A stretch of DNA of 64,000 nucleotides from Candidatus Vecturithrix granuli (GTDB lineage Bacteria > Moduliflexota > Moduliflexia > Moduliflexales > Moduliflexaceae). A program made the position numbers and the translations under genes. The DNA lies in NCBI GenBank assembly GCA_000739535.1, contig DF820463.1, forward strand, positions 380,195 to 444,194, given 5' to 3'. A model generated the notes under the pieces. That model was not told the DNA's origin and made no database searches. It worked only from the letters and a program-made list of their open reading frames with translations. This document shows, piece after piece, positions 1,818-44,718 of this stretch (within the stretch, counting starts at the first letter, position 1; each line of letters opens with the position of its first letter).

Positions 1818-1947
1818 AACGTGAGTTCGGGATAAGAAAAACGCCGTAAAAGTCTCAAAAGGACGGGACCTGGTAGCCCAGGGTTCACCCCCTGGGCTAC
1901 CAGATTTCGCCCCGTTGGGGCTTAAAAACTTATCTCGAACTTACGTT
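1818..1947. mobile_element. MITE-like element, family 1, copy A
   Basis: The 130-bp element has terminal inverted repeats AACGTGAGTTCGGGATAAG and CTTATCTCGAACTTACGTT (17 of 19 match). It is flanked by direct repeats ATGAT (1813-1817 and 1948-1952) that look like a target-site duplication. The interior holds a perfect 12-bp stem (GGTAGCCCAGGG with its complement) and codes for nothing. A second copy with the same ends but a different interior lies at 35308-35439. It is a non-autonomous element by structure, and no transposase is in the window. Confidence 0.72.
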
Positions 1948-21011: not shown

Positions 21012-21110
21012 GTTTACCGCATCAAGGAAAATCCTTGTCGGATGTCTCAACTTTTGAGAGAGATTCTCGTCCATCTCTTTGAAAACATTTTATCTGTAAA
21101 AGGAAGCATA

Positions 21111-21231
21111 TATACTTGAGACCGCATAAATTTGTGACAATCTCACCCCCTTCCCCCTCTCCTAATTTAGGAGAGGGGGGACTGAGGGGGAGTGGTCAAA
21201 AAAATCACAAATTTACCCGGCCTCAAGTATA
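21111..21231. mobile_element. MITE-like element, family 2, copy A
   Basis: The 121-bp element begins TATACTTGAG and ends CTCAAGTATA. The ends continue as near-inverted repeats (CATAAATTTGTGA against TCACAAATTTACCC). Inside is a C-rich stretch followed by its G-rich complement around CTAATTTAG. The same element is at 42217-42336. It lies in the 325-base gap between the NRPS and the peptide-binding protein. Nothing else in that gap is recognisable apart from the start region of the next gene. Confidence 0.68.
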
Positions 21232-21336
21232 GATTGAAATTAATTTTTCGACAGACGTACGGTATGCCCAATCAGAAGTGGGACCATCGTTCCGAACGAT
21301 AGGATCTCTGGCGGCAACCGAGGTGGGAGTAACGAT

Positions 21337-25292: not shown

Positions 25293-26396
25293 TTAGCGCA
25301 CAAATCGCTGAATCACCTCAATCACCTGTTCAATGCCATTAGTCGTAGTTGCCGCATTCATCGCCTGGATAAGTGTCTGGCGTTGTTCGTAGGTGCAGCG
25401 AATATTTTCGATCAAGCTTGCGACCGTCAAATCTTCCTCTTCAAGTACGCGACTGAAGCCCTGTTTGGCAAAGGATTGCGCGTTCAACACTTGATCTCCG
25501 CGGCTGGCTTTGCGTGAGAGCGGAATCAACAGATTTGGTTTGCGCAAGGTCAGCAACTCAAAGATGGTCGTAGCCCCGGCGCGTGAGACTACCACATTCG
25601 CCAGCGCTAACAGATGCGGCAATTCTTTGTCAACGTACTCGAACTGCGCATATCCCGGAGTTGTTTGTAATTTCCCCTCCCGGGAGGGGCCAGGGGTGGG
25701 TAAATGAATTTCCGCCTGAATATTGCCTGGCCCGCAAATATGACAAATCTGAAACTGCGGCTGCAATTCCTGGAGCGCGTTGCGAATCACGTGATTGATC
25801 GTTTCCGACCCCTGACTTCCGCCAATAATCAGTACAACCGGTTTCGTGTCCGTAAATCCGCACAACTCTCGACCTTTGGCCTGCTCTCCCTTTTGCAAGG
25901 ATTCTCGGATAGGAATACCCGTATGAGTAGCTTTTCCTGACGGGAGCATGGCAGCGGTTTCGGGAAAACTGTAACAGATGTGCACGGCAAAAGGCAGCGA
26001 CAGTTTATTCGCCAGACCCGGCGTCAAATCCGATTCATGAAGAATGGCCGGTATGCGGTGCAGCCAGGCCGCCCATACTAACGGACAGGAGACAAAGCCT
26101 CCTTTGCTGAAAATAATGTGCGGTTTTATGCGGTACAGTAACAAGCAAGCCTTCAGAAAACCGGCGATGACAAGAAAGATATCGCGCACATTTTTCAGAT
26201 CAATATAGCGGCGCAGCTTACCCGCCGGAATGGGATGATAGGGAATCCCTTCCGGTTCGATGAGTTGGCGTTCGATACCTGTGGTTTGCCCGACGTAATG
26301 AATCTCAAACCCCAGAGAACGCAATCCGGGCAGCAGCGCAATATTTGGCGTAACATGTCCCGCCGTTCCCCCGCCCGTCAGTATGATACGTTTCAT
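25293..26396 (-). CDS. murG: UDP-GlcNAc:lipid-linked MurNAc-pentapeptide GlcNAc transferase MurG
   Basis: The 367-residue enzyme is taken from the ATG at 26396 so that the N-terminus is MKRIILTGGGTAGHVTPN, the glycine-rich MurG motif. An upstream in-frame ATG at 26450 adds an unlikely 18 residues. Other family marks are FSKGGFVSCP, HESDLTPGLANK, IIGGSQGSETIN and the C-terminal donor-site SRAGATTIFELL. It makes lipid II at the inner face of the membrane in peptidoglycan synthesis. It stands outside any dcw cell-wall cluster. A palindrome-encoded PTPGPSREG insertion interrupts the region between the two Rossmann domains (25671-25704). It may be a second copy, since the cluster copy could be elsewhere. 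Confidence 0.87.
   Translation of the reverse strand: MKRIILTGGGTAGHVTPNIALLPGLRSLGFEIHYVGQTTGIERQLIEPEGIPYHPIPAGKLRRYIDLKNVRDIFLVIAGFLKACLLLYRIKPHIIFSKGGFVSCPLVWAAWLHRIPAILHESDLTPGLANKLSLPFAVHICYSFPETAAMLPSGKATHTGIPIRESLQKGEQAKGRELCGFTDTKPVVLIIGGSQGSETINHVIRNALQELQPQFQICHICGPGNIQAEIHLPTPGPSREGKLQTTPGYAQFEYVDKELPHLLALANVVVSRAGATTIFELLTLRKPNLLIPLSRKASRGDQVLNAQSFAKQGFSRVLEEEDLTVASLIENIRCTYEQRQTLIQAMNAATTTNGIEQVIEVIQRFVR
25671..25704. repeat. Intragenic palindrome in murG
   Basis: The core CCCCTCCCGGGAGGGG lies inside murG and is read in frame as PTPGPSREGK. Its flank CCAGGGGTGGGTAAA matches one arm of the 72-bp palindrome inside the helicase gene (30777-30848), so this is a shortened or single-arm copy of the same family. 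Confidence 0.65.
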
Positions 26397-26465
26397 GATA
26401 AAAATATGCAAATCGAGATGACAAATTCGTGAGATATTTACGATGAACACTCTTTGTTCATCAGA

Positions 26466-26867
26466 TTAGATAAAAATTGCAGGATTACACGCAAAACGCT
26501 GGCTTAATGCCCTGATCTGTCGTGTATTTAACTCCCGTTTCCCGGCTAATATCTCAGAAATCACGCCAGGGCTGCCAAGTTCCGTTAAATCTTTCTGTTT
26601 TAATCCATGTTCCTGCATGAAATATTTCAGACAACCAACCGGGGTTCCTTGAGGTTCCGGAACATGCTGCTGTTCATATTCCGCGATGAACATCCCGACA
26701 ATATCTAGCAGTCCCATGAGCGGATGTTCAGGATTACCCTGGGTTTGATCCATAAGATAATCCGCGAATCCGATCAACTTGTTCACTTCTGTCTCTGTCG
26801 TCGGAGCAGACAAATAGGATGAGACCGACGGCCAGATCTGAATTAGTTGTTGGAACTCCTGAACCAT
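26466..26867 (-). CDS. HigA-type antitoxin (HTH)
   Basis: The 133-residue protein is taken from the ATG at 26867, which has AGGAGG at the complement of 26872-26877. An ATG at 26882 encodes MEGGS, which is that ribosome site itself. The C-terminal half is a Cro/C1-type helix-turn-helix (MQEHGLKQKDLTELGSPGVISEILAGKRELNTRQIRALSQRF), and the N-terminal half is the acidic domain usual in this HigA group. It overlaps the toxin gene by 25 bases and would neutralise it and repress the operon, as in other higBA pairs. Confidence 0.82.
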   Translation of the reverse strand: MVQEFQQLIQIWPSVSSYLSAPTTETEVNKLIGFADYLMDQTQGNPEHPLMGLLDIVGMFIAEYEQQHVPEPQGTPVGCLKYFMQEHGLKQKDLTELGSPGVISEILAGKRELNTRQIRALSQRFACNPAIFI

Positions 26868-27157
26868 AGATCCTCCTTCCATTTCTCCCGATTGTATTCA
26901 TCATGCGTGAGAATGTGTCGAATAAATAAACGTTTCAGTGGATAGCGAATGAAAGCAATCAGGCGATATTTGTTGCCGCCAATATTGAACACCACAAAAT
27001 TACCCACCTGATCCGCACTGGGAAACAAGTGCTTGACATCAGCAAAAGTGGTGAAGGATTCATGCTTGACAATACGATACCAGTGTTGCAATGAATGGCT
27101 TGCCCCAGCATGTTTTTTACAAAACTCCTGGATCTTTTTGTAACTAATGATGTGCAT
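26843..27157 (-). CDS. HigB-type toxin (RelE fold mRNA interferase)
   Basis: The 104-residue protein matches HigB: FTTFADVKHLFPSADQVGNFVVFNIGGNKYRLIAFI, then KRLFIRHILTHDEYNREKW. Members cut mRNA at the ribosome and are held in check by HigA, whose gene follows directly with an overlap, in the toxin-first order typical of this type II system. The C-terminus (KEDLWFRSSNN) is normal. Nothing suggests inactivation. It lies next to the defence-type island, where such pairs are common. Confidence 0.83.
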   Translation of the reverse strand: MHIISYKKIQEFCKKHAGASHSLQHWYRIVKHESFTTFADVKHLFPSADQVGNFVVFNIGGNKYRLIAFIRYPLKRLFIRHILTHDEYNREKWKEDLWFRSSNN

Positions 27158-28192: not shown

Positions 28193-31100
28193 ATGGCGGA
28201 AAAATTCCTGCAAGGTACGATTATCACAGGCCCGAACTGGCCGGAACCGGTTGAAATCAAATTGATTGAAGAGACCGGCGATTATGTGCACATTGTCGGA
28301 GCCACGAAGCATTCCCGTCAGCATATTGATCAACTGCTGTCAAAGGCAGAGTTTGCGCAATTGCAGCCTGACCGGGTTCACACGAATTTCAGCGCAGAAG
28401 CCTGGAAAGTTTTTTTAGCCCTGGAAACCCTGCGCTATCGTTTTGCGTCCATGTATGATCCGTTGATCGCCATGAACGCCTCAAAAGTCGATCCCCTGCC
28501 GCATCAGATTGAAGCGGTGTATGGCTGCATCTTAAAAAAGCCGCGCATTCGTTTTCTGATTGCCGACGACCCCGGGGCCGGCAAAACCATTATGGCCGGG
28601 CTGTTAATCAAAGAATTGAAAATCCGCCAGCTCGTTAAGCGCATTCTAATTGTGGCGCCAGGGCATTTGCGCGATCAATGGCGGCGCGAACTGAAAGAGC
28701 GTTTCGAGGAAATCTTCATCCCGGTCGGACGCCAATATCTTGACGCGCTGTTTGGGCAAAATGTCTGGATGCGTGAAAATCAGGTGGTCACGTCGCTGGA
28801 TTTCGCCAAACGCGAGGATATTCTGCCCTCCATTGCTGCGGCGCACTTTGACCTGATCATCGTGGACGAAGCCCACAAAATGAGCGCGTATCGCTACGGC
28901 GAAAAGATTGATAAAACCAGCCGCTACAAGTTAGGCGAAACCCTGTCTAATACGTGCGAACATCTGCTGTTCCTCACCGCCACGCCCCATAAAGGGGACC
29001 CTGAAAATTTTCGCCTGTTTCTGGATTTGATTGAACCGGGGTTCTTTGCGACCAATGAATTGGTGGCGGAATCGGTCAAAAGCAAAGATAACCCCTTGTT
29101 TATCCGCCGCATCAAAGAGGACTTGCAAGATTTTGAGGGCAAACCCCTGTTCCTGCCGCGCCATGTGCACACGGTCGGTTTTCACTGGAAAACCACGTCG
29201 CCTCATGAAGTCGAACTCTATAACGCGCTCTCGCACTATGTGGAAACCCAATACAATAAGGCCCTGGCTAAAGACAAACGCCGCAATATCGCCTTTGCGC
29301 TGGTGATCTTGCAGCGCCGCCTGGCTTCCAGCACGTACGCGCTGCTGAAATCCCTGGAACGGCGTAAAAAACGTCTGGAAGAATACCTGCAAGGCGCGGC
29401 CGGCAATCAAAAATTCTCGGAGAATGCGTTTGATTTCGAAAGTGTGGAGGATATGAGCGAAGAAGAACGCTGGCGCGAGGAAGAAATCTGGGAAACCCTG
29501 AGCGTCGCGGAGAACCGCGCAGAACTGGAAAAAGAAATCAGGATCCTTGCCAAACTGATCGAGCAGGCCGCAGCCATCATTCAACAGGAAGAGGAGATCA
29601 AACTCAAGGAATTCAAGCGCGCGTTGCAAGAGCTTTCCGCAAAATATCAGGACCCACAGGATAAGAAAATTTTAGTGTTCACCGAGTCGCGGGATACGCT
29701 GGATTATCTGGAAAACAAGATTCGCGCCTGGGGCTACCGCACCAATACCATTCACGGCGGCATGAAACTGGAAGAACGGATCAAAGCCGAGGGGATTTTT
29801 AAGCACGAGACCGATGTGCTGATTGCGACTGAAGCGGCCGGCGAAGGCATTAATTTGCAGTTCTGCCATCTCATGCTGAATTATGACATCCCCTGGAATC
29901 CGAATCGCCTGGAGCAGCGCATGGGGCGCATTCATCGCTACGGACAACAGAAAGAAGTGTTTGTGTTTAATTTAGTCGCGCTTGACACCCGCGAAGGCAT
30001 GGTGCTGCACACGTTGTTTGAGAAACTGGATGAAATTCGCAATGCCATGGGCAGCGATAAAGTGTTTGACGTGCTGGATGAGGTGCTCTATCAGCAAAAC
30101 CTGGCGCAGTTAATGCTGGAAGCGGCCGCCCACGCCCGCAGCATGGAGGACATCCTGCAAGAACTCGACATCAAGGTGGATGAGGAATACATTCAGCGCA
30201 TCAAAGAAAATTTAGGCGAAAGCCTCGCCACTCGCTACATTGATTACACGCGCATCAAAGCCATGGCGCAGATTGCCCGCGAACACCGTCTGATCCCGGA
30301 ATACACCGAGAGCTTTTTCAAAAAAGCGCTGTTGAAAGCCGGGGGGAAATTCAGAAAACGCAAAGACGGGTTTCTGGCAATTGAATCCATTCCTTTCGAG
30401 ATTCGCGCCCTGGCTGAGGATGACACGTTTAAAAAAGCTTACGGCGACCTGCTGCGACGTTATCCCAAAGCCACGTTTGACAAAGAGATTGCGTTTAAAC
30501 ATCAGGACGCCGAATTTCTCTGTTTTGGGCATCCGTTATTTGAGGCGATGATGCTCTACATTGAACAGACATGCTCTGACGCGCTGCTCACAGGCGCAAC
30601 ATTTCTTGATCCCGACGGCCTGCTTGACGGCTATATCGTGTTTTATGAAGGTGAAATTCGAGACGGCATCGGCAGCGCGGCCGGCAAACGCCTGTTCAGC
30701 TTTTACGTGCAGGGTCAACAGGTAAAACCTTTTCCGGCGGCCGGGATCTGGGATTTAGCTGAAGCCAGCCATCTTTTACCCACCCCTTGCCCCTCCCAGG
30801 AGGGAAACAAGAGCGAATTCCCCTCCTGGGAGGGGCAAGGGGTGGGTATTGAACAGATCACCTCAATTTCCAACACGCAGGCTATCAACGCATTGGAAAA
30901 TTATAAACAAGAACTGCTGCAAGAACGCCAGCGCCAGGCAGCAATCAAAGAAAAATACGGCGTGCAATCCCTTGAGTATCTGGACTGGAAATTGGACGGG
31001 GAATTGATCGCCTTGTTGGGCCGTCAAGAACAGGGGGAAAATGTCGATTTGGTAATTCGCAACAAGCAAGAACGCAAAGCCAGCTATGGGAAGGCATTAA

Positions 31101-31594
31101 ATGAGTTGAAAGCGCAGATTGGCAAAGAAAAAAGCTTGACGATGAGCATGCCCCGCTTTAAAGGCATCATTCGGGTAGTCCCTGCAACCCTGGTTGAACC
31201 GGACATGCGCAGCGATCCTGAAGTGGAACGCATCGGCATGGAAATCAGCATGGCGTATGAACAACAGCAGCAGCGCATCCCTGAAGATGTGGCTGACCAG
31301 AACCTGGGCTTTGACATTCGCTCCCGGGACCCAAAAACAAAGGACATCCGCTATATCGAGGTGAAAGCGCGTTCAACCAGGGCCGCGGTAGCCTTAACGC
31401 AGAATGAATGGTTCAAGGCTAAACAATTCAAAGACGCTTATTATCTGTATGTCGTGTTAAATACCGCCGCCGAGCCGAAACTCTACATTATTCAGAATCC
31501 GGCGGAAAACGTGAACGCTGAAGAGAAAATCGAAGTCGTGCGCTACATTATTCCATTGACACAAATTCAGGAAAAAGGGAAACTCAATAATTAA
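28193..31594 (+). CDS. SNF2-like helicase with C-terminal DUF3883 (DISARM DrmD-like)
   Basis: The 1133-residue protein starts at ATG 28193 with AAGGGGGAA upstream. Superfamily 2 motifs are clear: Walker A DDPGAGKT (Lys131), D225EAH, the TATPHKGDP motif and motif VI QRMGRIHRYGQ. A charged coiled coil lies between the two RecA lobes. The C-terminal ~110 residues match DUF3883 (LGFDIRSRDPKT, then YIEVKARS), a domain with the E-x-K pattern of nuclease-like folds that is often fused to defence helicases. A palindrome adds 24 in-frame residues near 862-885. It is the first gene of a set with the DUF1156 methyltransferase and DUF499 ATPase, a neighbourhood related to DISARM. Its likely role is DNA translocation in phage defence (inference). 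Confidence 0.85.
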   Translation: MAEKFLQGTIITGPNWPEPVEIKLIEETGDYVHIVGATKHSRQHIDQLLSKAEFAQLQPDRVHTNFSAEAWKVFLALETLRYRFASMYDPLIAMNASKVDPLPHQIEAVYGCILKKPRIRFLIADDPGAGKTIMAGLLIKELKIRQLVKRILIVAPGHLRDQWRRELKERFEEIFIPVGRQYLDALFGQNVWMRENQVVTSLDFAKREDILPSIAAAHFDLIIVDEAHKMSAYRYGEKIDKTSRYKLGETLSNTCEHLLFLTATPHKGDPENFRLFLDLIEPGFFATNELVAESVKSKDNPLFIRRIKEDLQDFEGKPLFLPRHVHTVGFHWKTTSPHEVELYNALSHYVETQYNKALAKDKRRNIAFALVILQRRLASSTYALLKSLERRKKRLEEYLQGAAGNQKFSENAFDFESVEDMSEEERWREEEIWETLSVAENRAELEKEIRILAKLIEQAAAIIQQEEEIKLKEFKRALQELSAKYQDPQDKKILVFTESRDTLDYLENKIRAWGYRTNTIHGGMKLEERIKAEGIFKHETDVLIATEAAGEGINLQFCHLMLNYDIPWNPNRLEQRMGRIHRYGQQKEVFVFNLVALDTREGMVLHTLFEKLDEIRNAMGSDKVFDVLDEVLYQQNLAQLMLEAAAHARSMEDILQELDIKVDEEYIQRIKENLGESLATRYIDYTRIKAMAQIAREHRLIPEYTESFFKKALLKAGGKFRKRKDGFLAIESIPFEIRALAEDDTFKKAYGDLLRRYPKATFDKEIAFKHQDAEFLCFGHPLFEAMMLYIEQTCSDALLTGATFLDPDGLLDGYIVFYEGEIRDGIGSAAGKRLFSFYVQGQQVKPFPAAGIWDLAEASHLLPTPCPSQEGNKSEFPSWEGQGVGIEQITSISNTQAINALENYKQELLQERQRQAAIKEKYGVQSLEYLDWKLDGELIALLGRQEQGENVDLVIRNKQERKASYGKALNELKAQIGKEKSLTMSMPRFKGIIRVVPATLVEPDMRSDPEVERIGMEISMAYEQQQQRIPEDVADQNLGFDIRSRDPKTKDIRYIEVKARSTRAAVALTQNEWFKAKQFKDAYYLYVVLNTAAEPKLYIIQNPAENVNAEEKIEVVRYIIPLTQIQEKGKLNN
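30777..30848. repeat. 72-bp protein-coding palindrome in the helicase gene
   Basis: TACCCACCCCTTGCCCCTCC opens the element, and its reverse complement closes it. The arms are about 28 bases around a 15-base centre. The length is exactly 24 codons, read through in frame as a Pro/Ser/Glu/Gly-rich segment (PTPCPSQEGN, then FPSWEGQGVG). It resembles Rickettsia palindromic elements in behaviour. Confidence 0.8.
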
Positions 31595-32506: not shown

Positions 32507-35053
32507 ATGACTAGCACCAAACGCTTTATCGAAGAATCCTTTCCGGTCAAGGAAGTCAGCGTGGAATCGGCGCGGGAAAAGAATATCCGGCACGGCCATA
32601 TTTCCACGCTGCACATCTGGTGGGCGCGCCGGCCTCTGGCCTCTTCGCGGGCGACCGCATACGCGGCCCTCATTCCGGCCCCGGCCAATATCGAGGAATG
32701 GCAGAAAGAACGGGATTTCATCGTCGAATTGTGCAAATGGGAAAATTCGAATAATCAACAACTGCTGGAACGGGCGCGGCGTAAAATTCTGGAAGCCAAC
32801 GCCGGGGTCCCGCCCAAAGTGCTCGATCCCTTTGGCGGCGGCGGTTCCATTCCCCTCGAAGCCCTGCGTTTAGGCTGTGAAACCTATTCGAATGATTTAA
32901 ACCCGGTCGCAGTCTTGATTCAGAAATGCACGCTGGAATACCCGCAGAAATACGGCCAACCGATTCCCAAAACCCAATACCTGGCTGAACGCCCCTGGCT
33001 GATGAGAGAAGACTCCCGGAGTCTGACAGACTCCGGGAGTCTGTTTGCTGATCGCTCCGAAATGGTCAATCCCTTAGTGGAAGACGTGAAATATTGGGGC
33101 AACTGGGTGTTGGCGCAAGCCAAAAAAGAGATCGGCCGTTTTTACCCGGAAGAACCGGACGGTTCGATTCCGGTGGGCTATATCTGGGCGCGGACGATCC
33201 CCTGCCAGAATCCGGCCTGCGGCGCGGAAATCCCCTTAATGCGCCAATACTGGCTGGCGAAAAAAGCTAAAAAGCATGTGGCCCTGTTTCCCTTCGTAGA
33301 AAATAATACCGTGCAATTCAAAATTGTGGGCGACGGGCCTGCCCTGAGCGGAGTCGAAGGGCACGATGAATGGCCGGCGGGCTTTACACCGGAAAACGGC
33401 ACGGTCGCTCGCGCCGTGGCAACCTGCCCGGTCTGCGGTTCAACAATCGCAGACAAAATGACCCGCCAGCTTTTTCAAGAAGGTAAAGCCGGGCAGCGCA
33501 TGATTGCGGTTGTGACCCACAAACCCGGGACAAGCGGCAAAAAATACCGCGTTGCTACAGCGCAGGACATGGCGGTGTTTACAGAAGCCGAAGCGTACTT
33601 GCAGGAAAAACGGGAAAAATTGATGCTGGCATGGGGCATGGATCCTGTGCCGGACGAATTGATAACAAGACCCTGTCACGACATTGATAGACCACCAATG
33701 TATGGGATGTTAAGTTGGGGCGATTTATTTAATGCCCGGCAAAAACTGGCATTGATGACCTTTGTGGAGAAGGTACGGCAGGTACGCGAAAAAATGTTGG
33801 GAATAGGAATAGAAGATGAATATTCGAAAGCGATAGGGAGTTATTTAGGCCTGAGCCTGGATATGCAAACGGGTTTCAATAGCAGCTTATCCAGGTGGGA
33901 AAATACCTCACAAATTATAAAACATGTATATTCCCGACAAGCGTTGCCAATGATGTGGGATTACGCTGAAAATAATTCATTCAGTGGTTCAACAGGTAGT
34001 TGGTTAAATGGATTTAATTATTATATGAACAGCGTTATTCATTGTTCCACAATCCCTTTTTCTTGCAGTGTCACTAACAATTCGGCAACACAATTGACTT
34101 TTGAAAATGACTCTTTTGATGCTGTTTTCACTGATCCCCCTTATTACGATAACATTGGTTATGCAAATCTTTCTGATTACTTTTATGTCTGGCTCAAGCG
34201 ATCTCTGATTATTACCTATCCCGAACTGTTTTTCACCCCGTTGACGCCTAAAAATAATGAAATTGTTTCTGATCTGAATCGTCATGGTGGAAAAAATAAT
34301 GCACGAAAATTTTTTGAAGAAATGCTCAAAAAATCGTTTCAGGAAATCTACCGAATCTTAAAACCTAACGGTACGGCGGTCATCGTTTACGCTCATAAAT
34401 CCACAGAAGGTTGGGAAACGCTGATTAATTCGCTGTTGGATTCCGGGCTGATTATGACCGGCGCATGGCCTTTAAATACTGAGATGCAGACCAGGCTTTT
34501 GGCAAATGAAACAGCGGCGCTGGCGTCTTCTATTTACATCGTGGCGCGTAAAATGGCGCGGCAGCCCACCGGTTTTTACACGCAGGTCAAAGAGGAACTC
34601 AACCGCTATCTCGCGCAAAAACTGGAACGGCTGTGGCAGGAGGGGATCAGCGGCTCGGACTTTTTTATTGCGGCCATCGGCTCGGCCATTGAGGTGTTTG
34701 GCAAATACGAACAGGTGATGGATTACGAGGGCAATGTCATCCGCGCCGACCGCTTGTTGCAGGACGTGCGCAAGATCGTGACCGATTTTGCGGTGAAACA
34801 AATCTTGCACAATGGTGCTTCGACTGCGCTCAGCACAAGCTTTGCCGGGGAAATTTCCGACCTGACGCGCTTTTATGTACTCTGGCGCTGGGAATTCGGC
34901 GCGGCCAAAGCGCCCTTTGATGAGGCCCGCAAACTCGCGCAGAGCTGCAGCCTGGATTTAGCCTTGCACTGGAACCGTCCGGGCTTCATCCAAAAAGAAA
35001 AAGAATTCATCCGTATTCTGGGACCCCCCAGGAACGCAAACCGGACAGCCTGA
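32507..35053 (+). CDS. DUF1156 DNA methyltransferase (frameshifted near the C-terminus)
   Basis: The 848-residue protein begins with the DUF1156 block ([20 protein letters not shown], then [17 protein letters not shown]). The S-adenosylmethionine site is D107-PFGGGGS, with SNDLNPVAV following. The catalytic motif D543-PPYYDN indicates amino-methylation of DNA. Two Cys pairs (CQNPACG and CPVCGS) suggest a zinc ribbon. The frame ends abruptly after a C6 run at 35024-35029, and the family's C-terminal end continues in another frame to 35325. Three palindromes lie in frame inside it. It probably marks host DNA in a DISARM-like system with the helicase and the DUF499 ATPase. The catalytic core is intact, so activity is possible. 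Confidence 0.84.
33010..33042. repeat. Perfect 33-bp palindrome inside the methyltransferase gene
   Basis: AGACTCCCGGAGTCTG and its exact complement flank one central base. It is read in frame as 11 codons giving [10 protein letters not shown]. It lies in a surface-like linker after the DUF1156 region. Confidence 0.75.
33341..33362. repeat. Palindromic repeat inside the methyltransferase gene (copy of a GAGCGGAGTCGA type)
   Basis: GCCCTGAGCGGAGTCGAAGG plus GC reads in frame as ALSGVEG. The GCCCT/AGGGC ends are inverted. A variant copy with GTGCT/AGCAC ends is at 34815-34836. Similar repeats occur widely in environmental genomes. Confidence 0.55.
34815..34836. repeat. Palindromic repeat inside the methyltransferase gene, second GAGCGGAGTCGA-type copy
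   Basis: GTGCTTCGACTGCGCTCAGC plus AC is the opposite-strand form of the repeat at 33341-33362. It is read in frame as GASTALST. Confidence 0.55.
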
Positions 35054-35960: not shown

Positions 35961-38528
35961 ATGAAACCATTTCACACGATTGCTGTGCCGCATGATGATA
36001 TTTTGCAGGGGCGTTTGACCATGGACGTGTTTGCCGCGGATTTATGGGAAGCCGCTCAAAATCGCGGCTCGGATGAATATCGAGATGCCGAGACCTTTTT
36101 TAAAAAAACCTATCTCACACAAGGGCTGGACAATTTATTGCACGTGGTACAAAAGCGTGTGACGGGACAGGGCGGAGACCCGATTATTCAGATTCAAACC
36201 CCCTTCGGCGGGGGCAAAACCCATGCGCTGATCGCCATGTATCATCAGGCGCAGCAATGGAACGCGAAACGGGTGGTCATGGTGGGCACGGCGTTAGGTC
36301 CGCGCAACACCCTGTGGGGCTTTCTCGAAGAACAATTGACCGGGAAAATCGAACGCTGCCCCGGACAGGTCTCGCCCGGCAAAGAAACTCTGCGCGCGCT
36401 GCTCGCTGAAAACCAGCCGCTGGTGATTCTGATGGATGAAGTGTTGGAATACGCCACCAAAGCCGCCGGCGTCCGGGTCGGCGACAGTAATCTGGCGGCC
36501 CAGTCCATCGCCTTCATGCAGGAACTTTCCGAAGCGGTCAGTACTTTGGAAAAGGTCTGTCTGGTAGTCACCTTACCGGCCAGTCTGCTCGAACATTACG
36601 ACGAGGGGGCGGAGAAATTATTCCAACAGTTGCAAAAAGTGTCGGGCCGGGTGGAAAAGATTTACACCCCGGTCGAAGAACATGAAATCGCCCGCATCAT
36701 CCGCCGCCGGCTGTTCAGCCGCCTTGATGCGGACGAGGCAAAGACGGTCGTCTCTGCATTTGTTGAGTATGCCGAGAAAGAAAATATTCTGCCCGGCGGC
36801 ATGCAAGTCAGTGAATACCGCACCCGGTTTACCGATTCTTATCCGTTTATGCCAGAGGTGATAGATGTGCTCTATCATCGCTGGGGCAGTTTTCATACCT
36901 TTCAGCGCACGCGCGGCGCGCTGCGCTTATTATCGCTGGTTATCCATCATCTCAAGGATTCGAATACGCCATATATCAGTTTGTCCGACTTTGATCTCGG
37001 CCGGCAGGAATTACGCCAGGAATTATTAAAACATATCGGCGCTGAATTTAACAGCGTGATTGGGGCTGATATCTCCGGCAGCGAGGCTGGCGCACAAAAA
37101 GTTGATCGAATGCTTGGCAAAGCTTATCAGGGCTTGAAGATCGGCAGCCGCACCGCCACAGCCATCTTTCTCTACTCCTTTTCCGGCGGCCAGGAACACG
37201 GAACCACCCTGGGGGAAATCAAACGTTCGGCCGCTACCCTGCAAAATCCCTCGCCGGTCGTGGCTGAAGCGATTGAGCAGCTAAAAGCGAAACTGTTCTA
37301 TCTCCAGAGTCGCGGCGACAAATATTTTTTTGATAATCAAGTCAATTTGAATCGTATCCTTCTGAACTACATGGAAAATGTGAAAGAGGAGGATGCGACG
37401 GATTTGGAAATGAGCCTGCTGCGTTCAGTGGTCAAAGGCAGCCGGTTCAAAACCTATCTCTGGGAAGATGCGTCGCTCAATATCGCCGATTCGGAAGAAT
37501 TCAAGCTCGTGGTGTTGAAAAAAGAGGACAAAGCGGTCATCAGCGATATTTTGAAAACAAAGGGGCACACTCCGCGAGTGTACCGCAACACCGTGTTTTT
37601 CCTGTATCCACTGGAATCTGATCGCAGTTATTTTCTTACCACGCTCAAACGCAAAATTGCCTTTGAGACGATTGCCAAAGATCAGCACCTGCGGCTGACT
37701 GAGGACCAGAAAAAAGAGGTCAAAGAAGAACTCAAAAAACTGGAAACCCCTTTAAAGGAAGCGGTGCGCCGCTTGTATCGCATGATCGCCATCCCGGCCA
37801 AAGACGGGTATAAAGAAAAGGATCTGGGCATCGCCGCGTATGGCTTTACGAAGAGTCTGGATGAGGAAGTGTATGAGCAACTGCGGCTCGAGAACGACAT
37901 CCTGCAAAAAATCGCTCCGCTTGTGTTGAAAGAGAAATATCTGATCGGAAAAGAGTATGTCTTCACCGCACAGATGTATCAGGCGGCGCTGACCACCCCG
38001 GGCGAGGCCAGACCGGCCGATCGTCTGGTGCTCGAACATGGCATCCGCGAAGGCGTGCAGATGGGCGTGTTCGGTCTGGGGGAATTAGAGGAAGACCGCC
38101 CGCGCTGTATGTATTTCAAAGAACGCGCGGTTGTGGCGTTTGCCGGCAATGAGATTCTCATCCGACAGGACATCTGCGAGCAGCAGAAGCAGGCACAGGA
38201 ACAGGACATTAAGCCGCAGGCACCCCCGGTCTATCGCGGCGGCGAAGAACAGAAACCGGTCGGCGTGAACGACCGCGCTACTTCCCCGGTTGAGCCGCAT
38301 CAGCCTGTTCGCCCAACGCACGCGCAGTTACGCTTAACCTTTGAAATCCCAAAAGGCAAAGTCGCTGGCATTATGGGCGTGATAAATTTGTTACAGAGCA
38401 AGTTCACCTCCCTTGAAATTTCGTTAAAGGCAAAAAACGGCGCGATTTCCCAGCAGGAAATCGAAGATAAAATCGAAGAAACCTTTCGGCAGTTGAATAT
38501 TCCGTTCGAGCTTTCCGATGAATCCTGA
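35961..38528 (+). CDS. DUF499 AAA-type ATPase of the defence-type locus
   Basis: The 855-residue protein starts at ATG 35961 with AAGGAG upstream. The P-loop FGGGKTHALIA (Lys86) and Walker B LVILMDEVLEYA mark an ATPase. The opening PHDDILQGRLTMDVFAADLW is typical of DUF499 proteins. An Arg-rich RIIRRRLFSRL and a helical C-terminal half follow. The last ~90 residues (after a Pro-rich linker near 760) form a small separate domain. DUF499 ATPases co-occur with DUF1156 methyltransferases and DUF3883 helicases in defence islands. The precise activity is not known to me. It closes the island and is not interrupted. Confidence 0.82.
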   Translation: MKPFHTIAVPHDDILQGRLTMDVFAADLWEAAQNRGSDEYRDAETFFKKTYLTQGLDNLLHVVQKRVTGQGGDPIIQIQTPFGGGKTHALIAMYHQAQQWNAKRVVMVGTALGPRNTLWGFLEEQLTGKIERCPGQVSPGKETLRALLAENQPLVILMDEVLEYATKAAGVRVGDSNLAAQSIAFMQELSEAVSTLEKVCLVVTLPASLLEHYDEGAEKLFQQLQKVSGRVEKIYTPVEEHEIARIIRRRLFSRLDADEAKTVVSAFVEYAEKENILPGGMQVSEYRTRFTDSYPFMPEVIDVLYHRWGSFHTFQRTRGALRLLSLVIHHLKDSNTPYISLSDFDLGRQELRQELLKHIGAEFNSVIGADISGSEAGAQKVDRMLGKAYQGLKIGSRTATAIFLYSFSGGQEHGTTLGEIKRSAATLQNPSPVVAEAIEQLKAKLFYLQSRGDKYFFDNQVNLNRILLNYMENVKEEDATDLEMSLLRSVVKGSRFKTYLWEDASLNIADSEEFKLVVLKKEDKAVISDILKTKGHTPRVYRNTVFFLYPLESDRSYFLTTLKRKIAFETIAKDQHLRLTEDQKKEVKEELKKLETPLKEAVRRLYRMIAIPAKDGYKEKDLGIAAYGFTKSLDEEVYEQLRLENDILQKIAPLVLKEKYLIGKEYVFTAQMYQAALTTPGEARPADRLVLEHGIREGVQMGVFGLGELEEDRPRCMYFKERAVVAFAGNEILIRQDICEQQKQAQEQDIKPQAPPVYRGGEEQKPVGVNDRATSPVEPHQPVRPTHAQLRLTFEIPKGKVAGIMGVINLLQSKFTSLEISLKAKNGAISQQEIEDKIEETFRQLNIPFELSDES

Positions 38529-42161: not shown

Positions 42162-42216
42162 AATCACCTTTTCAAAAACTGAAAAGTTCAAGAGAGCGTG
42201 GCATTGGATAGCAACA

Positions 42217-42336
42217 TATACTTGAGACTGCATAAATTTGTGAACACCTCACCCCCTTCCCCCTCTCCTAATTTAGGAGAGGGGGACTGAGGGGGAGTGG
42301 TCAAAAAAATCACAAATTTATGCAGTCCGCAGTATA
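42217..42336. mobile_element. MITE-like element, family 2, copy B
   Basis: The 120-bp element begins TATACTTGAGACTGCATAAA and ends TGCAGTCCGCAGTATA, inverted with a few changes. The interior is almost identical to 21111-21231. It sits about 55 bases upstream of the GGDEF gene, so it could affect that gene's promoter. Confidence 0.68.
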
Positions 42337-42378
42337 TATTACAACATAATTTATCTCGACAATGTAAAATTAACGGTA

Positions 42379-42558: not shown

Positions 42559-44718
42559 TCAGCAATCTTTGGCCTGAATCAATTTTAAGATGTTCTCATA
42601 CTCATATTCATGCGCCAATGCTGCCAGGCGTTCCGCGATAACTGCATCATAGGGGCGAATCTCTTCAATAATTCGTGTAATCCGAAGAATGTCCGCCGTG
42701 GTAGTCGCATACGTTAATCTCTGAAGCACTTCAGCAGGCAGCGCGGCAAGTCTCTCAGCAATCAGTGCATGTTCATGGCGTTCCTGTTCGGAGAGTTCGT
42801 GGATCTTTCCCTTCTGTTCTGCCTCTCTGGATTGGTTGAGATATTCTTCCAAACCGTGGGCGATCTCTTTGAGCTGATATTGCTTGAGCCAGGGTTGAAA
42901 GTGAGCGACAAAGGAAGCGAAGCGTTCGTGCGAATCGGCCAGGATCTGGAATTGTTTGCGTAGTGCCAGGATGTCGCCCATGTATGCCAGAGATAATAGG
43001 GTTTCGAGCGTTGCCACTGCTGGGAGGCAGAGTGGGAGAGAGCGCGCCAAGACTTGTGTTGTCTCTCCGGTAGTTTCATAGTTCCACTCTATATCCAGCA
43101 CGTGCTGAAGCTGTGTGAAGAGCAATTCGGCATCAATCGGTTTAGGCAGAAACGCGCAGCCTCCAACCTTTGCGCTTTGCTGGCGATCAACGTCAAAGAT
43201 GCTCGCAGAGGTTGCAATGACCGGGATGTGTTGCAGGGCAGGACTCCGCTTGATCTGCCGGATCAACTCGAATCCATCCATTTCCGGCATTCGTAGATCG
43301 GTAATCACAAGATCTGGCTGCCCTGTGAGCGCGCGGCGCAATCCATCTCTTCCACTTTCGGCTTCCAGAATCTCGAATCCCAGCGGCGATAACAGATCGC
43401 GTAAGACCATCCGGTTCTCCCGAAGGTCTTCCACAATCAGCACTTTCGGGACGGTTCCCGGCCTTCCGCGCCAGATTTTGATCCCGATTTTTTTCCGTCT
43501 GCCAGAACTGACGTCTGCTTCTGGCAAGACACAGCGCAACGGTAGATCACAGACAAAGGTACTACCAACTCCGAATTCACTGGACACAGCGATCGTGCCG
43601 CCCATGAGTTCGACCAGATTATGACTGATCGCCAACCCTAATCCTGTCCCCTGCATACGGCGAGCGGCCTCGCCGACCTGCTGAAACGGGGCAAACATAC
43701 GCGGAAGGTCTTCCGGCGCAATGCCTACCCCGGTATCTTGAATTGAAAATTGCAGATTGACGACTGAAGTATTTTCACTTTTCAGGCGACAATCTGCAAT
43801 TTTTTTGACGCGCAGGATCACGCGGCCCTGGTCTGTAAATTTAACAGCGTTACCTAACAAATTGAGCAAAATTTGCCGGATGCGCTGCTCATCGCCGTGA
43901 ACATAGTCAGGCAGATCGTTTGCCAATTCCACCCGAAATTCCAGGCGTTTTTGATCGGCGCGGATTCGCATAATATCCACCACTTCCCGAATAAAGTTGG
44001 AAAGATGGAAGTCTTTCAATGTCAATTCGATTTTGCCGGCTTCTACTTTGGCGAGATCAAGAATATCGTTGATCAGGGTGAGCAAATGGCGTCCGCTGCG
44101 TTCAATAATCTCAACTCCTTCGATTTGTTTTGGGTTGAGGGAAGGGTCGCTTTTGAGAATCTGGGCATACCCCAAAATGCCGTTGAGTGGCGTGCGCAGT
44201 TCATGGCTCATATTGGCCAGAAACTGGCTTTTGGCTGTATTCGCGGCTTCTGCCGCCTCTTTAGCTTGTTGGAGCTCGATATTCTGCCTGTATAATCGCT
44301 GCCGCGCCTCATGTAAGGCCAAATGAATGCGAATACGGGCTAACACTTCTTGTGATTCAATCGGTTTCGGAATATAATCCACCGCGCCGATTTCAAACGC
44401 TTTGACTTTATCAAGGGATTCATTGAGCGCGCTGATGAAAATGACCGGAATACTGCGGGTGCGTTCGTCGGCTTTTAAGTGTTCGCACACCTCGAAACCC
44501 GAGAGATCAGGCATCATAACATCCAGCAGAATCAGATCCGGGTGTTGGTTTTGAGCAGCAGCAAGACCCATTGCGCCATTGGTTGCAGGCAGTACCCGAT
44601 AACCTTCTTTCATCAGCAGGTCAACGAGTAAGCGCAGGTTAGCGCGAGTATCATCAACCACTAAAATCGTTTGTGATGGTGTGGGGAAAGCAGGGCCTGC
44701 GGCATCGTTTTGAGTCAT
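42559..44718 (-). CDS. Hybrid histidine kinase REC-HisKA-HATPase-REC with conserved C-terminal tail
   Basis: The 719-residue protein, without membrane segments, has AGGAG seven bases before its ATG, inside the end of the upstream kinase gene. REC1 is at 16-135 (LLDVMMP, KPIES), HisKA at about 165-230 (phospho-His in [12 protein letters not shown]) and HATPase at about 275-400 (NLLGNAVKF, then IQDTGVGI, then GTGLGLAIS). REC2 is at about 425-545 ([10 protein letters not shown], then [12 protein letters not shown]). A helical C-terminal region ends with the tail shared by its neighbours ([17 protein letters not shown]). An in-frame palindrome inserts about 18 residues in the ATPase domain. It is probably translated together with the preceding sensor kinase and relays to other regulators. 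Confidence 0.87.
43747..43802. repeat. In-frame palindrome in the kinase ATPase domain
   Basis: AAATTGCAGATTG (43747-43759) and CAATCTGCAATTT (43790-43802) are perfect inverted arms, with an inner CTGAA/TTCAG pair. It is read on the minus strand as [19 protein letters not shown] in the loop before the IQDTG motif. Confidence 0.7.

What the first reader, a model, noticed from the sequence alone, without database searches (positions are those of the whole stretch)
30777..30848. A 72-bp palindrome inserted in frame in the helicase
The arms are about 28 bases, the length is exactly 24 codons and the reading frame is kept. Behaviour is like Rickettsia palindromic elements, which spread within genes. 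Here it lies in a linker of a large enzyme.
Basis: seen in the sequence. Interest (0 to 1): 0.75.

Follow-up and report, generated by a model that had tools for sequence, protein, structure and literature searches.

The report
Dispersed palindrome inserted in helicase gene
A short hairpin-forming repeat, copied about 80 times around this bacterium's genome, has landed inside a phage-defence helicase gene without breaking its reading frame; about a third of its insertion sites are inside working genes, usually read as the same peptide.

Summary
Window 30777-30848 is a 72-bp hairpin (28-bp perfect stem, 16-nt loop) in frame inside HmaA, the helicase of an intact HmaABC defence operon. Sixteen homologues have 35-49 residues between the flanking anchors, against 56 here; AlphaFold leaves residues 863-883 unstructured. 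The palindrome is an inverted pair of a 30-nt unit, ACCCACCCCTNNCCCCTCCCAGGAGGGGAA, found at about 82 places (58 clusters) in the 8.4-Mb genome, against 0-1 for the reversed control. It is absent from the three nearest relatives and present in two unrelated genomes. Inward pairs match each other at the variable NN (9 of 11; P<1e-5), so the long hairpin is the propagating entity, as in REPINs. Most clusters are intergenic. Nineteen lie inside open genes (Cas6, MurG, UvrD, kinases and others), where sense units almost always read PTPxPSQEG and carry their own NN signature. The unit lacks the GTAG/CGTC tags of described REPs, and none of 12 Y1 transposase genes is flanked by it. It works like a REPIN and, in genes, like a Rickettsia palindromic element, but is a member of neither as defined. 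In-frame intragenic REPs are known, so this is a new variant of a known kind.

The parts
30777..30848 (.). 72-bp palindrome: inverted doublet of the 30-nt unit, 28-bp perfect stem; encodes about residues 862-885 of HmaA
30778..30807 (+). first 30-nt unit, sense, reads P-T-P-C-P-S-Q-E-G (phase 2)
30818..30847 (-). second 30-nt unit, antisense, reads F-P-S-W-E-G-Q-G-V-G (phase 0)
30828..30846 (+). canonical G-quadruplex motif GGGAGGGGCAAGGGGTGGG within the second unit (mirror copy on the - strand at 30779-30797)
   Evidence: motif match only, folding not tested
28193..31594 (+). HmaA helicase (SNF2/DEAD, NOV_C C-terminal domain) that carries the insertion
32507..35053 (+). HmaB DNA methylase; carries two further short palindromic inserts of other families
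33010..33042 (.). 33-bp perfect palindrome (AGACTCCCGGAGTCT-GAC-AGACTCCGGGAGTCT) in frame in HmaB; about 10 such doublets in the genome
33338..33361 (+). 24-bp in-frame insert in HmaB ([26 protein letters not shown] repeat family, 188 genome matches), missing in 5 homologues
35961..38528 (+). HmaC AAA+ ATPase, completing the Hma operon
25672..25701 (-). single copy of the same 30-nt unit in frame inside MurG (ORF 25293-26450, - strand), reads LPTPGPSREGK

Best explanation
The palindrome is one copy of a dispersed, non-autonomous, hairpin-forming element built from two inverted copies of a 30-nt REP-like unit. It inserted in frame into a loop or linker of the HmaA helicase and survives because its sequence has open frames and the site tolerates a disordered loop. 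Shown: the element, its genome-wide copies, its absence from homologues, the matching of the two arms of inward doublets, and the frame bias of copies in genes. Inferred: that it moved by a hairpin-recognising HUH/Y1 (RAYT-type) mechanism acting on single-stranded DNA and supplied from elsewhere in the genome or since lost; that most intragenic insertions were purged; and that survivors are those with a multiple-of-three length and a frame that gives a soluble, stop-free peptide (PTPxPSQEG sense, FPSWEGxGVG antisense).
For: Copies: about 82 units in 58 clusters with a sharp 5' edge, against 0-1 in the reversed control; 0 in same-family/order relatives G001-G003, present in G004 and G050. Doublet as the unit: 11 inward pairs, NN equal in 9 against 2.3 expected (none of 100,000 permutations reached it), outward pairs 2 of 8. 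Insertion: 35-49 residues between anchors in 16 homologues against 56 here; predicted disorder at 863-883. Tolerated in genes: 19 clusters in 16 open genes, 15 of them with Pfam domains, including MurG in this same window. Frame bias: 15 of 18 sense units (11 of 14 gene loci) in phase 2, though phases 1 and 2 are always stop-free (binomial about 7e-4 by loci). Genic units form a subgroup with G at position 11: 13 of 20 against 4 of 37 intergenic, Fisher P=4e-5.
Against: None of 12 Y1_Tnp genes has the unit within 1.5 kb; the ones inspected carry other repeats. The helicase doublet has a 10-nt loop unrelated to the 22-25-nt spacer of most doublets, so it may not have arrived as a standard doublet. 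No empty site from a close relative exists to prove an exact 72-bp gain. Genic copies were found through open frames, which biases towards in-frame cases. The assembly is a draft with 10.75% estimated contamination.
Confidence: 0.83

Rival explanations
1. A single 30-nt unit inserted first, and the palindrome was then made on the spot by inverted duplication or template switching, so the doublet never moved as such.
For: The two arms share the rare NN = TG and differ at one base; the loop CAAGAGCGAA is unlike the spacer of most other doublets. Genic copies elsewhere are mostly single units.
Against: Arm matching is general to inward doublets, including intergenic 82-85-bp ones with shared spacers, so it needs no local event. 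Another doublet (C9:133462) also has a short 9-nt loop.
Confidence: 0.25
2. The element is a MITE moved by a DDE transposase that recognises the terminal ACCCACCCC inverted repeats, not a REP moved by a Y1 enzyme.
For: Inward doublets are 69-85 bp with terminal inverted repeats; no Y1 transposase gene is flanked by the unit.
Against: Single units and outward pairs are common, and no target-site duplication is evident in the 52 aligned flanks. No autonomous element with these ends was found between inward units, although only regions around copies were read.
Confidence: 0.25
3. The hairpin or its G-quadruplex motif is a selected regulatory element of the hma operon.
For: Very stable mRNA hairpin (-67 kcal/mol). 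The only canonical G4 motifs in the 64-kb window are in copies of this unit, and 63 of 82 units have one.
Against: Homologous hma operons lack it. Copies lie in unrelated genes and intergenic sites. Loop positions of the G4 are as conserved as the G tracts apart from NN, so selection on a quadruplex is not shown.
Confidence: 0.06
4. The 24 residues are an original part of the helicase and the palindrome is coincidental.
For: The linker is variable in length among homologues (35-49 residues).
Against: Genome-wide copies of the same DNA in unrelated genes; no homologue has related residues.
Confidence: 0.02

Closest known systems
REPIN (REP doublet forming a hairpin; Bertels and Rainey 2011, PMC3116915)
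   Same: Two inverted copies of a short palindromic unit with a short variable spacer; dispersed at tens of sites; doublets whose arms match; singlets also present.
   Different: No RAYT gene flanked by the unit found here; unit sequence not among those described there; REPINs are described as extragenic whereas a third of the clusters here are in genes.
GTAG-/CGTC-tagged REPs, including intragenic REPs (Di Nocera et al. 2013, PMC3733652)
   Same: 20-40-bp palindromic units, singly or as dimers, some inside ORFs (uvrA, recB, DNA polymerase and others; more than half of the intragenic ones as dimers or groups encoding 20-30 residues).
   Different: Neither a GTAG nor a CGTC tag at the end of the unit. 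The section of that paper read here does not report one dominant frame or a sequence subgroup for genic copies.
Rickettsia palindromic elements (RPE-1 to RPE-7; Ogata et al., as described in PMC2229807 and PMC3767692)
   Same: Palindromic repeats in frame inside many unrelated protein genes, tolerated at the protein level, also found between genes.
   Different: RPEs are about 100-150 bp and Rickettsia-specific; here a 30-nt unit and 69-85-bp doublets in a lineage with few sequenced relatives.
MITEs found in frame in genes (ERIC/RU-1, Correia 107-bp form; Delihas reviews PMC2229807, PMC2759123)
   Same: Small non-autonomous repeats with open frames fused in frame to genes.
   Different: Those are 100-170 bp, mostly with target duplications; no such duplication is evident here.

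Membership tests
REPIN | two inverted REP units forming one hairpin | tested here: met
   arms match in 9 of 11 inward doublets
REPIN | cognate RAYT (Y1_Tnp) gene flanked by the same REP in the genome | tested here: not met
   12 Y1_Tnp matches; no unit within 1.5 kb of any; those inspected have other repeats. Draft genome, 94% complete, so absence is not final.
REPIN | doublets more conserved than singlets | not tested
   The copy sets were chosen by similarity, which would bias the comparison.
GTAG/CGTC REP superfamilies | GTAG or CGTC tag next to the palindrome | tested here: not met
   The end of the unit is ACCCACCCCT / AGGGGTGGGT
Rickettsia palindromic elements | in-frame insertion in unrelated protein genes, absent from homologues | tested here: met
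   clear for HmaA, approximate for MurG, homologues not compared for the other genes
Rickettsia palindromic elements | RPE element of 100-150 bp in Rickettsia | tested here: not met
   30-nt unit and 69-85-bp doublets; the relatives survey places the host in a sparsely sampled lineage; no RPE models were available to search
Hma defence system (host gene) | HmaA helicase, HmaB methylase and HmaC AAA+ ATPase adjacent | tested here: met
   PADLOC E 1e-201, 1e-148, 3e-121

The most novel reading that the evidence does not exclude
Genic copies are a separately evolving subgroup of the repeat (mostly single units, G at position 11) that persists because one frame encodes an innocuous Pro/Ser/Glu-rich linker, PTPxPSQEG: a mobile DNA element shaped by selection on the peptide it adds to host proteins. 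The genome carries several such gene-dwelling palindrome families at once, three of them in one defence operon.
Probability: 0.3. Interest if true: 0.72.

Novelty: new variant of a known kind. Interest (0 to 1): 0.5.

Why it matters
In-frame palindromic repeats are best known from Rickettsia, and intragenic REPs have been catalogued in a number of other species. Here an untagged repeat family in a poorly sampled, large-genome lineage does the same, with a clear preferred reading frame and a genic subgroup. That makes a long-standing question, whether such repeats survive in genes by neutrality or by selection on the encoded peptide, testable with strain comparisons. It also warns that odd peptides such as [17 protein letters not shown] and [12 protein letters not shown] in proteins from metagenome-assembled genomes can be mobile-repeat insertions rather than protein features.

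Tried and rejected
Rfam finds nothing in the palindrome (one hit elsewhere). RAYT linkage was looked for and not found in this genome nor clearly in G050/G004. A related C-rich doublet family was checked as a possible autonomous parent: the intervening DNA is short or masked, with no transposase seen. The unit sequence was searched for in the paper library without a relevant hit. G-quadruplex selection was considered and not supported beyond the motif itself. The MurG insertion is only roughly supported: 80 residues against 72-74 in most relatives, but 80-82 in two. The organism could not be named with the tools.

Full report
Observation. Arms 30777-30807 and 30818-30848 are 97% complementary over 31 nt, with a perfect 28-bp stem around a 16-nt loop. 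Its folding energy is about 10 standard deviations beyond shuffles of the same composition, and it is the strongest hairpin of the window. It lies inside an intact 1133-codon ORF.

Host gene. The ORF is a SNF2/DEAD helicase with a C-terminal NOV_C domain. Its best PADLOC match is HmaA (E 1e-201). It is followed by HmaB and HmaC, so the insertion is in a complete Hma phage-defence operon.

It is an insertion. In 16 aligned homologues (most of them 54-68% identical over nearly full length) the stretch between the conserved WDL and QERQRQAA anchors is 35-49 residues long, mostly 36-38; here it is 56. No homologue has related residues. Taking out 24 leaves 32, slightly less than any homologue, so either the local linker was short or a few residues were lost on insertion. 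The AlphaFold model built on 14 sequences (mean pLDDT 69, modest) gives residues 863-883 a pLDDT below 50 and no secondary structure, between a folded domain ending near residue 854 and a long helix from 886.

The repeat family. Pattern and alignment work resolve the palindrome into two inverted copies of a 30-nt unit, ACCCACCCCTNNCCCCTCCCAGGAGGGGAA, with a sharp 5' edge. The genome (8.38 Mb, 21 contigs) has 37+48 matches to the 20-nt arm at up to 3 mismatches, against 0+1 for the reversed pattern, and a search with the 72-mer gives 104 matches. Scanning the fetched stretches gives 82 units in 58 clusters. Three relatives of the same family or order have none. Of 385 genomes surveyed (own included) only G004 and G050 also carry the exact unit core, and in G050 the whole unit through GGGGAT is recognisable in mostly intergenic copies. 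This points to horizontal spread rather than vertical descent; convergence over 28 fixed positions is unlikely (inference).

Architecture. Units occur as inward pairs (11, mostly 82-85 bp with a related 22-25-nt spacer; the helicase copy and one other have 9-10-nt loops), outward pairs (8, about 90 bp) and singles. In inward pairs the variable NN is the same in both arms in 9 of 11, against 2.3 expected when arms are re-paired at random (none of 100,000 permutations); in outward pairs it is 2 of 8. The long hairpin is therefore the coherent entity, as in REPINs (PMC3116915).

Genes. About 74% of the sampled DNA is in ORFs of at least 150 codons, yet only 19 of 58 clusters lie wholly inside such ORFs (P=7e-11): genes are avoided but far from free. 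By my own assignment 19 clusters are in 16 credible genes, 15 of which have Pfam domains: Cas6, a CHAT-TPR protein, two histidine kinases and a response regulator, a 2323-residue polyketide/fatty-acid-type synthase ORF with three units, UvrD, a radical-SAM protein, a methyltransferase, an FGE-sulfatase-domain protein, a BatD-like protein with three tandem units, a TPR protein with two, a DUF2298 protein with two, MurG and HmaA. Fifteen of 18 sense units read in the same phase (PTPxPSQEG), 11 of 14 when counted by locus, although two of three phases are always free of stops. Antisense units favour FPSWEGxGVG (5 of 8). The genic units differ in sequence from the intergenic ones: G at position 11 in 13 of 20 against 4 of 37 (Fisher 4e-5). 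Tandem units within one gene are spaced 36, 42, 45 and 84 bp. Caveat: genic copies were recognised by open frames, so the in-frame property itself is partly built in; the choice among open frames and the NN difference are not.

Mechanism. Shown: many copies, hairpin doublets, absence from homologues, frame bias. Inferred: mobility. RAYT (Y1 transposase) action is the most natural mechanism for REP doublets, and the genome has 12 Y1_Tnp matches. None is flanked by this unit, however, and those inspected sit among other palindromic repeats. A Y1 enzyme acting in trans, a lost enzyme, or a DDE-type MITE mechanism all remain open.

Known context. In-frame palindromic repeats are the hallmark of Rickettsia elements (PMC3767692, PMC2229807). 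Intragenic REPs, often as dimers encoding 20-30 residues and often in DNA-processing genes, have been listed in several species (PMC3733652). The present family shares the behaviour but lacks the GTAG/CGTC tags, differs from RPEs in size and host, and was not found in the held literature.

Wider picture. The same operon carries two more short palindromic inserts of other families in HmaB: a 33-bp perfect palindrome, of which about ten similar doublets occur in the genome with co-varying arms, and a 24-bp PALSGVEG insert missing from five homologues that belongs to a repeat with 188 matches. This genome seems to host several gene-entering palindrome families at once, which I regard as the most interesting part.

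Noticed in passing
window 33338-33361: 8-residue in-frame insert PALSGVEG in HmaB, absent from five homologues; matches the CCTGAGYGRAGTCGAAGG repeat (188 matches in the genome).
   Followed up: partly
window 33010-33042: 33-bp perfect palindrome in frame in HmaB; about ten 33-34-bp doublets of this family in the genome, arms co-varying, several in long ORFs.
   Followed up: partly
window 25672-25701: Same 30-nt unit as a single copy in frame in MurG, normally an essential cell-wall enzyme.
   Followed up: partly
window 43746-43803: 58-bp imperfect palindrome inside a 719-aa ORF (- strand); may be another in-frame insert.
   Followed up: no
L129 (G000:C19:256758-258611): Another helicase of this genome, a paralogue of HmaA, has an insert of about 70 residues made of repeat-derived peptides (RSTGDVPVIERSRDEE...SAKALLSLPKQSFGTP); similar peptides occur in the C16 2323-aa ORF and the C10 methyltransferase.
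   Followed up: no
window 21110-21235 and 42216-42340: Two similar copies (94% and 87% in two parts) of a related C-rich palindromic element (CACCCCCTTCCCCCTCTCCTAATTTAGGAGAGGGGG).
   Followed up: no
window 1877-1922: Rfam Acido-Lenti-1 match that resembles the GGGCTACCAG-type repeats next to a Y1 transposase (L036); the 'RNA' may be a REP-like repeat.
   Followed up: no
window 25682-25700, 30779-30797, 30828-30846: The only canonical G-quadruplex motifs in the window are all in copies of this unit; 63 of 82 units have one.
   Followed up: partly
window 26843-27157: 104-aa ORF matching PADLOC PD-Lambda-2_A, 1 kb upstream of the Hma operon: possible defence neighbourhood.
   Followed up: no
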